Source: a virus. From it: a stretch of 34,973 bases of DNA. The notes below the pieces were generated by a model that ran no database searches, had not been told where the DNA came from, and was given only the letters and a program-made list of their open reading frames with translations. Both the position numbers and the translations under genes were made by a program. The stretch is from positions 1 to 34,973 of IMG/VR virus record IMGVR_UViG_3300041409_000338. One strand, 5' to 3'. Shown in pieces: positions 23,586 to 31,163 of the stretch. The number at the start of each line of letters is the position of its first letter. Position 1 is the first letter of the stretch.

Positions 23586-23942
23586 TTATTCAACCAATCT
23601 ATCTACAAACTTCTCGATAAGTGACTCAAAGATAGGCTTATCTGCCTTATCCTCTTTGTAATCATCGCGGAATCTATTCTTCATAACGAACATCCAAGGA
23701 GTACCTGCGAAGTTTTTTACATCCCCGCATATTCCGTCCTTACCTATTCTTTCCCACACCCTCTGTGACTTCTGAAGGCCTTTGAGCAACGCTGCATCAA
23801 ATTCAGGATGCTTCTCACGCCACTCATACAGGGTTGTTCTGCAAATATCTAACTCAGCACAAACTGCTGCAAAGCTCTCTCCACTTGCTAAGATGTCGAT
23901 AGCCTTACTGCAATATGCGCTATTATATTTAAAATCGGCCAT
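23586..23942 (-). CDS. Terminase small subunit
   Basis: 118 aa. N-terminal helix-turn-helix of the terminase small subunit type, residues ~13-42 (ILASGESFAAVCAELDICRT then TLYEWREKHPEF), followed by a helical oligomerisation region and FAGTPWMFVMKNRFRDDY, which small terminases share. It recognises the packaging start site and recruits the large subunit. Shorter than P22 gp3 (162 aa) and of a different, more widespread subtype. First of the packaging genes apart from one small upstream ORF. Confidence 0.9.
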   Translation of the reverse strand: MADFKYNSAYCSKAIDILASGESFAAVCAELDICRTTLYEWREKHPEFDAALLKGLQKSQRVWERIGKDGICGDVKNFAGTPWMFVMKNRFRDDYKEDKADKPIFESLIEKFVDRLVE

Positions 23943-29674: not shown

Positions 29675-29706
29675 GATCGCCTCATTTATTAATAAATGAG
29701 GCGGTC
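29675..29706. repeat. 26-bp perfect palindrome covering the next gene's ribosome site
   Basis: CGCCTCATTTATT (29678-29690) is followed directly by its reverse complement AATAAATGAGGCG (29691-29703), and one wobble plus two further pairs extend the arm to 29675 and 29706. AGGCGG, the only Shine-Dalgarno-like sequence for the gene starting at 29712, lies in the 3' arm. It could be an operator or a hairpin that sequesters translation. Arms share GCCTCAT/ATGAGGC with 26126-26157. Confidence 0.7.
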
Positions 29707-30113: not shown

Positions 30114-30650
30114 ATGGATAAGTCAAAAAGTAAATATCATACTGATGCAGAGTTAACTATATTATTGCATGCAGTGCATGAATATCAATCTGATAAAAAT
30201 ATTACTATGGAAGAGGTGTCTGTTAGGCATAATATTGATTTAACGACTCTTAGGAACTTTAGAGCAACTTTCCGTCTTAATATAAAAAAGCATGAAAACT
30301 ATAAAAATCTTAATGAAGACAGAATAAAACAGGGTAAATCTATTAGCGAATATTCTAAAGAATACAATCTCAGTCGTTCTCGGTTAGCAAGGGTGAGTCA
30401 CCATTTGACTCTCATCGAAAGGATAAAAAAAATCACTTCAATATCTATGAATAAAACAGAAGACACCTCTAAAGAGCTTAAATTTATATCTATATCATCC
30501 ACTGATTCAATACCAAAAACAGAATCTCCACCACCCAAAGAACCCTCTAAAATTCAAATGACATTGGAGTCAGGAATTATGATTATTATTCCCTCCTATG
30601 TTGATAAGGATGAGGTCATGAAGATTATAAATTTATTAAGGGAGATGTAA
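30114..30650 (+). CDS. IS66 TnpA-like DNA-binding protein
   Basis: 178 aa. Two helix-turn-helix-like segments: residues ~27-55 (TMEEVSVRHNIDLTTLRNF) and ~73-100 (GKSISEYSKEYNLSRSRLAR). After a Ser/Pro-rich linker, the C-terminal 32 residues (IQMTLESGIMIIIPSYVD, then EVMKIINLL) match the characteristic strand-and-helix end of IS66 TnpA (OrfA) proteins. Overlaps the TnpB-like gene by one base (TAATG), as in IS66 elements. Longer than usual TnpA because of the duplicated HTH and linker. No TnpC and no terminal inverted repeats are present, so it is probably a domesticated pair rather than an insertion element. Confidence 0.72.
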   Translation: MDKSKSKYHTDAELTILLHAVHEYQSDKNITMEEVSVRHNIDLTTLRNFRATFRLNIKKHENYKNLNEDRIKQGKSISEYSKEYNLSRSRLARVSHHLTLIERIKKITSISMNKTEDTSKELKFISISSTDSIPKTESPPPKEPSKIQMTLESGIMIIIPSYVDKDEVMKIINLLREM

Positions 30651-30967
30651 TGCTAATACCTTACGAAAACAAAAAAATACTTATTGCTTCCGAGCCGGTC
30701 GATTTTAGATTGTCAATTGATGGGCTATCAAGTTTCATACAAAACAAAACTTCAAATCATTTGTACGACGGGAGTATTTATGTATTTTACAATAAACATA
30801 GAAACAAAATAAAATGTTTATTTTGGGATAGAAACGGGTTTGTTTTATATTACAAAAGATTAGACCAATGTACATTTAAAGTTAAAAAAATGTTAAATGC
30901 GATTGAACACATTACATCATCAGATCTTGAAGTATTGCTATCAGGGTTTGATAGGCAAAATATATAG
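30650..30967 (+). CDS. IS66 TnpB-like (IS66 Orf2) protein
   Basis: 105 aa, the normal TnpB length. It carries the family core: D18-F-R20-x3-D24-G-L, then IYVFYNKHRNKIKCLFWDR (43-61) and NGFVLYYKRL, and the ending LEVLLSGFD. TnpB of IS66 is needed for transposition with TnpA and TnpC but its chemistry is unknown. Coupled to the TnpA-like gene. The protein keeps every conserved block although the element around it is gone, arguing for a retained, different function in the phage. Confidence 0.85.
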   Translation: MLIPYENKKILIASEPVDFRLSIDGLSSFIQNKTSNHLYDGSIYVFYNKHRNKIKCLFWDRNGFVLYYKRLDQCTFKVKKMLNAIEHITSSDLEVLLSGFDRQNI

Positions 30968-30983
30968 AAGCGAGGAAGGCAAA

Positions 30984-31163
30984 ATGGATAATGACTTTGA
31001 TAAGCAAAAAAAATCTATAGCAGAGGCAATACAAAATCTTAAGCGATTAAATAAAGAGCTTGGAAAGCATTTAGAAGATTCTATAACATTTAATGAAATT
31101 AATAATACATTTAGCTATCGACCAGAAAAACGTTATGAGTCTTCAGAAAAAGAAAAGAAATAA
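30984..31163 (+). CDS. Small coiled-coil protein after the IS66-like pair
   Basis: 59 aa from ATG 30984 (MDNDFDKQKKSIAEAIQNL), which has GAGGAAGG before it; the longer frame starting inside the TnpB-like gene is rejected. Residues ~5-35 are coiled coil, the C-terminus is charged (EKRYESSEKEKK). It sits where IS66 would have tnpC, but it is unrelated in size and composition. Likely part of the same transcription unit. Confidence 0.6.
   Translation: MDNDFDKQKKSIAEAIQNLKRLNKELGKHLEDSITFNEINNTFSYRPEKRYESSEKEKK

What the first reader, a model, noticed from the sequence alone, without database searches (positions are those of the whole stretch)
30114..31163. IS66 TnpA-like and TnpB-like genes kept in a phage early operon without TnpC
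The pair retains TnpA C-terminal and all TnpB conserved blocks and the one-base TAATG coupling of IS66, but TnpC transposase and terminal inverted repeats are missing, and a 59-aa coiled-coil gene follows instead. The genes share codon style, spacing and strand with their early-operon neighbours. This suggests a domesticated, possibly DNA-targeting or regulatory two-protein module; the cellular function of IS66 TnpB is itself unknown, so a stand-alone phage version is informative. It is my leading candidate for an undescribed system.
Basis: partly seen in the sequence, partly recalled or inferred. Interest (0 to 1): 0.72.

Follow-up and report, generated by a model that had tools for sequence, protein, structure and literature searches.

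The report
Phage-domesticated IS66 helper gene pair
A family of environmental phages has kept two helper genes of a jumping gene (IS66 tnpA and tnpB) without the transposase, as one conserved DNA-binding pair; because nobody knows what TnpB does, this transposase-free version gives a clean place to find out.

Summary
ORF 30650-30967 is an IS66 TnpB (PF05717 E=5e-29) and the overlapping ORF 30114-30650 is a modified TnpA. No transposase (TnpC) was found in the window or in 32 other records carrying the pair, and no terminal inverted repeats flank it in the window; the nearest known IS66 (Legionella israelensis plasmid) has both. The phage TnpBs form one clade (bootstrap 95) with that element as sister. 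TnpB is under strong purifying selection (synonymous sites near saturation, pN 0.03-0.15). TnpA has a duplicated, fast-diverging helix-turn-helix and a tail that may hold TnpB. The pair is accessory: 3 of 34 close relatives of the window, but most of a second lineage, where the tree needs about three changes; it occupies different operon slots. It never co-occurs with ParA or a tyrosine integrase (0 of 22 records versus 9 of 35 without it), a lead towards prophage maintenance, not proof. The 59-aa ORF has no homologue and is not part of the module. The mechanism is inferred: a phage-specific DNA-binding complex in which TnpA chooses the site and TnpB is the conserved effector. No earlier description was found in the library searched.

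The parts
30114..30650 (+). tnpA-like gene, 178 aa: two tandem helix-turn-helix segments, flexible linker, C-terminal beta-hairpin plus helix
   Evidence: ORF; family alignment; hhalign to IS66 TnpA; AlphaFold2 pLDDT 84
30144..30272 (+). helix-turn-helix 1 of TnpA (residues 11-53), homologous to the single HTH of IS66 TnpA
   Evidence: hhalign prob 97.7, E 2e-12; helices 11-26, 32-38, 43-53
30282..30461 (+). helix-turn-helix 2 of TnpA (residues 57-116), a duplicate of HTH1
   Evidence: hhalign HTH1-HTH2 prob 96.6; HTH2-IS66 TnpA prob 95.5; helices 57-73, 77-83, 88-116
30549..30647 (+). C-terminal tail of TnpA (residues 146-178), proposed TnpB-binding part
   Evidence: more conserved than the HTHs across phages; strands 146-150, 156-160 and helix 165-177; binding is inferred
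30650..30967 (+). tnpB gene, 105 aa, IS66 Orf2 family, ATG overlapping the tnpA stop by one base
   Evidence: PF05717 E=5.4e-29, NF033819 E=1.6e-26; clade and selection

Best explanation
The pair is a transposase-free derivative of an IS66 element, captured (most simply once) by an ancestor of a podovirus family and kept as a working two-protein module. Shown: homology, absence of TnpC, no terminal repeats in the window, single clade, purifying selection on TnpB, duplicated and fast-diverging HTH in TnpA, coupled genes, patchy presence in several operon slots. Inferred: TnpA binds a phage-specific DNA site through its two HTHs, its conserved tail recruits TnpB, and TnpB is the conserved effector, so that the complex acts on the phage's own DNA. 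Its most likely use is regulation or maintenance of the phage genome (lysogeny, partition or immunity), not transposition.
For: TnpB membership; TnpA HTH homology and duplication; no TnpC; no terminal repeats in the window while the Legionella IS66 sister has TnpC and 22-nt repeats; one clade, found in 96% of bootstrap trees; TnpB pS 0.5-0.95 with pN 0.03-0.15; TnpB 53-76% identical across phages whose capsid proteins are mostly 20-30% identical to the window's; one-base overlap or direct abutment in most loci; cassette present or absent among close relatives; never together with ParA or tyrosine integrase.
Against: No binding site, iteron or operator was found. The fast-TnpA, slow-TnpB gradient is almost as steep in ordinary IS66 elements, so it is largely inherited. 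26 relatives lack the pair, ParA and integrase alike, so a maintenance module is not obligatory; within the one well-sampled lineage only two of about three losses coincide with ParA or integrase. TnpA-TnpB contact was not measured (fused model pTM 0.45).
Confidence: 0.55

Rival explanations
1. Prophage-maintenance system: the pair replaces integrase or ParA partition, TnpA marking a centromere-like site and TnpB tethering it, as a motor-less partition or immunity system (a narrower form of the best explanation).
For: 0 of 22 pair-bearing long records carry PF00589 or PF13614 against 9 of 35 without the pair (naive p 0.008); 12 further ParA-recruited records also lack TnpB; TnpB-minus relatives carry integrase or ParA upstream of TerL; diversifying TnpA fits incompatibility-driven change.
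Against: 26 relatives have none of the three; no iterons near tnpA; no close plasmid relative of this family in PLSDB; records are not independent; only about three losses in the well-sampled lineage.
Confidence: 0.2
2. Recombination or replication accessory: the pair works with the adjacent annealing and ssDNA-binding proteins.
For: In the window, G027 and G071 it lies on the same strand directly downstream of Sak4/DUF669 or RecT/SSB.
Against: In the best-sampled lineage it usually lies before the terminase, far from these genes; recombination genes are kept when the pair is absent.
Confidence: 0.12
3. Anti-defence or competition gene, for example blocking host or rival elements that use IS66-like or HTH-recognised sites.
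For: Accessory distribution and variable slots.
Against: TnpB is extremely conserved, unlike most anti-defence proteins (own knowledge); no PADLOC match, which does not test anti-defence.
Confidence: 0.1
4. Small terminase subunit or packaging factor, because in one lineage it precedes the large terminase.
For: Position before TerL, HTH domains.
Against: A TerS-like gene (phrog_309) lies at window 23586-23942 and its family is also found in TnpB-minus relatives.
Confidence: 0.02
5. Recent IS66 insertion that has lost tnpC and is decaying.
For: Homology to IS66.
Against: Intact, coupled pair under purifying selection in one clade of 33 records without any TnpC.
Confidence: 0.01

Closest known systems
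IS66-family insertion sequence of Legionella israelensis plasmid NZ_CP038274.1 (8259-10727)
   Same: tnpA and tnpB in the same order with the same one-base TAATG overlap; TnpB 46.5% identical to that of phage record G010 and sister to the phage clade
   Different: It has tnpC (529 aa), 22-nt terminal inverted repeats and a single-HTH TnpA of 113 aa; the phage pair has no TnpC, no repeats in the window, and a two-HTH TnpA mostly of 156-224 aa (up to 373)
IS66 family in general (TnpA, TnpB PF05717, TnpC PF03050)
   Same: TnpB family and TnpA HTH
   Different: no transposase, no terminal repeats found, embedded in phage operons
IS66 copies inside sequenced phages, for example Pseudomonas phage Marin
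   Same: IS66 tnpB in a phage genome
   Different: Marin carries tnpC next to the pair; its TnpB is only 33% identical
YTH / EVE (PUA-like) nucleic-acid-binding domains
   Same: best structural neighbours of the TnpB part (Z 4.0-4.5 over 88-99 residues)
   Different: Z is too low to claim the fold; no sequence match; a lead only

Membership tests
IS66 TnpB protein family (PF05717 / NF033819) | profile match above curated cut-off over the full domain | tested here: met
   100.5 bits against 26.6; 92.1 bits against 50
IS66 TnpA protein family | N-terminal helix-turn-helix homologous to IS66 TnpA | tested here: met
   hhalign prob 97.7, E 2e-12
IS66 TnpA protein family | conserved C-terminal part | tested here: inconclusive
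   profile comparison not significant, collinear weak BLAST matches, NF047595 E 0.045
IS66 insertion sequence | TnpC (DDE) transposase next to tnpA-tnpB | tested here: not met
   no PF03050 in 33 pair-bearing records; no six-frame remnant in fetched flanks
IS66 insertion sequence | terminal inverted repeats | tested here: not met
   no flanking pair in the window; Legionella IS66 repeat absent; control element shows it
Terminase small subunit | TerS homology or filling the TerS role | tested here: not met
   no TerS hit for TnpA; separate TerS gene at 23586-23942
ParABS-type partition system | Walker ATPase partner | tested here: not met
   no PF13614 in any pair-bearing long record
Motor-less (StbA-like) partition | centromere-like repeats near the DNA-binding gene | tested here: inconclusive
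   no exact 12-mer triplicates near tnpA; degenerate or inverted sites not excluded
Known anti-phage defence systems (PADLOC) | profile match | tested here: inconclusive
   no match for TnpA or TnpB
PUA-like (YTH/EVE) fold for TnpB | clear structural match | tested here: inconclusive
   VIA-align Z 4.0-4.5 only; Foldseek not significant

The most novel reading that the evidence does not exclude
The pair is a new kind of prophage-maintenance (partition, immunity or integration-substitute) system built from a transposon's site-recognition proteins, used instead of an integrase or ParA.
Probability: 0.15. Interest if true: 0.85.

Novelty: new variant of a known kind. Interest (0 to 1): 0.6.

Why it matters
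IS66 elements are widespread, yet no paper found here explains what TnpB does, and no relative with a solved structure was found by sequence. A natural system in which TnpA and TnpB are kept without the transposase separates their job from transposition, so DNA binding, partner binding and phenotype can be tested in a small, coupled, two-gene cassette. It also suggests that a transposon's helper proteins, not only its transposase, can be domesticated by phages.

Tried and rejected
Small-terminase idea: rejected, a separate TerS gene exists. 59-aa ORF as third partner: rejected, no homologues. Fast TnpA divergence as a phage-specific arms race: weakened by the control that ordinary IS66 shows nearly the same gradient. 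Iterons near tnpA: none. Family as plasmid prophages in PLSDB: nothing but three E. coli portals at 20% identity. First fused alignment A8 misaligned TnpA-only rows and was not used for folding. Foldseek of both models against PDB, and of the fused model against BFVD: nothing significant. VIA: YTH/EVE for TnpB at Z 4.0-4.5 only, HTH proteins for TnpA at Z up to 6.7; both below the level to trust. Solved-structure search by sequence: no significant match. Rfam and tRNA scans of the window: none. Host by NCBIfam on the flank of prophage G068: not decisive; by plasmid match: none. Literature searches for stand-alone IS66 TnpB in phages: nothing.

Full report
WHAT IS THERE. The window is a whole 34,973-base virus record. 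Two plus-strand ORFs, 30114-30650 (178 aa) and 30650-30967 (105 aa), share one base in TAATG. The second is an IS66 TnpB by two curated profiles (PF05717 E=5.4e-29; NF033819 E=1.6e-26). The first has no confident single-sequence hit, but the profile of its phage family matches the helix-turn-helix (HTH) of IS66 TnpA.

RELATIVES. Scans of IMG/VR with TnpB and its alignment gave 31 loci at 53-76% identity. Wherever the upstream sequence is held, a TnpA-like gene ends at or within a few bases of the tnpB start: most overlap by one base, in four the stop is directly followed by the ATG, and in a few there are 1-4 bases between. The one scan of bacterial genomes found this clade only in one contig (L034, from a 41-kb contig binned as Desulfosporosinus) that is itself a phage of the family; all other kept hits were at most 48% identical, and where readable most have a long tnpC-type ORF downstream and a TnpA of about 100-130 aa.

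NO TRANSPOSON. PF03050 (TnpC) is absent from all 33 pair-bearing records searched and from 46 records of relatives; an HMM of IS66 TnpC searched against six-frame pieces of the fetched loci found only the positive controls. The pair has no flanking inverted repeats in the window. The closest known element, on a Legionella israelensis plasmid, shows what is missing: single-HTH TnpA of 113 aa, the same TAATG overlap, TnpB 46.5% identical to that of phage record G010, TnpC of 529 aa and 22-nt terminal repeats; that repeat is not in the window.

ONE CLADE, STRONG CONSTRAINT. In trees of TnpB, 32-33 phage sequences form one clade (95/84 to 95/89, 96% of bootstrap trees) with the Legionella element as sister. 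With few columns and few close IS66 relatives sampled, 'one capture' is the simplest reading, not proof. Between close loci TnpB synonymous sites are near saturation (pS 0.5-0.95) at pN 0.03-0.15, so the protein is kept intact. It is more conserved than the capsid protein: TnpB 53-76% identical to the window's, capsid protein mostly 20-30%.

TnpA. The phage TnpA has two tandem HTHs; each matches the single HTH of IS66 TnpA and they match each other. AlphaFold2 gives confident helices for both, a flexible linker, and a C-terminal hairpin plus helix. HTH regions diverge fastest, the C-terminal tail less, TnpB least. The control matters: ordinary IS66 elements show almost the same gradient (HTH 31% at TnpB 73%, against 22% at 72% in phages), so fast change of the site-recognition part is mainly inherited. 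The weakest homology step is the TnpA tail, which does not match the IS66 tail significantly by profile and is only suggested by collinear BLAST matches.

DISTRIBUTION. The pair-bearing long records share portal, capsid and tail genes of one podovirus-like family. The pair is accessory: PF05717 in 3 of 34 records of the window's capsid lineage and in 7 of 12 of the G010 lineage, with an eighth (G066) holding tnpA at the contig end. Among portal-recruited loci with at least 4 kb upstream of TerL, 13 of 18 have tnpB there, and L185 has it elsewhere. A portal tree needs three changes. The pair lies after Sak4/DUF669 or RecT/SSB, beside a Cro-like gene, or before the terminase.

A LEAD ON FUNCTION. 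Relatives without the pair in the G010 lineage carry a tyrosine integrase or a ParA ATPase in three of four cases. Over 57 long records, PF00589 or PF13614 occurs in 0 of 22 with the pair and 9 of 35 without (naive p 0.0078); ParA-recruited records added 12 more without TnpB. This fits a role in prophage maintenance, but the records are related, 26 relatives have none of the three, and in the best lineage there are only about three independent losses. No iterons lie near tnpA and PLSDB holds no close plasmid relative of this family.

STRUCTURE OF TnpB. No sequence relative in the PDB; Foldseek found nothing significant. VIA-align ranks YTH and EVE domains, both PUA-like nucleic-acid binders (own knowledge), among the first for the TnpB part, at Z 4.0-4.5 over 88-99 residues. 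That is below the level to trust and is recorded as a lead.

HOST. Not established. One pair-less relative (G068) is a prophage with an integrase and a bacterial flank. The sister IS66 element is from Legionella, and the flank proteins look Legionella-like to me, which is an impression and not a test.

VERDICT. The module is an undescribed variant as far as the sources searched show; its function is inferred. Best reading: a phage-specific DNA-binding complex, TnpA choosing the site and TnpB the conserved effector, used for regulation or maintenance of the phage genome (0.55); the narrower reading as a partition or integrase substitute gets 0.2 or less.

Noticed in passing
L018:6671-9361 and L022:7455-10091: Large terminase with an in-frame insertion of roughly 360 aa (894 and 873 aa instead of 518), with the look of an intein.
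   Followed up: no
window 29675-29706: 32-bp near-perfect palindrome upstream of the pair, single copy in the window; could be an operator or terminator.
   Followed up: partly
window 30650-30967: The window's TnpB is 105 aa and lacks the roughly 10-15 residue C-terminal tail (often ..LEHxA) of its relatives.
   Followed up: no
L024 and L025: TnpA of 334 and 373 aa with long Pro/Glu-rich linkers between HTHs and tail.
   Followed up: no
L002, L004, L006, L007, L012, L016, L019, L034 (after tnpB): Small ORFs with a hydrophobic stretch start on the tnpB stop codon; similar ORFs also occur without the pair (L161, L169).
   Followed up: partly
L169:6316-6957 and relatives L322-L348: ParA-type ATPase genes in pair-less relatives of the same phage family; a ParB partner was not looked for systematically.
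   Followed up: partly
L034: Contig binned in a Desulfosporosinus MAG is a phage of this family, probably mis-binned.
   Followed up: no
L129:16917-17354 (-) and orthologues: Small gene with a conserved 'FVFGSNLxGIHxxGAA' motif before the terminase; reminiscent of macro-domain proteins but no Pfam match.
   Followed up: partly
L314:1-12600: Bacterial flank of the integrated relative G068 (IMGVR_UViG_2660238140); host not identified.
   Followed up: partly
L130:2950-3519 and orthologues: DNA invertase/resolvase-type serine recombinase (PF00239) in many phages of the G010 lineage, with and without the pair.
   Followed up: partly
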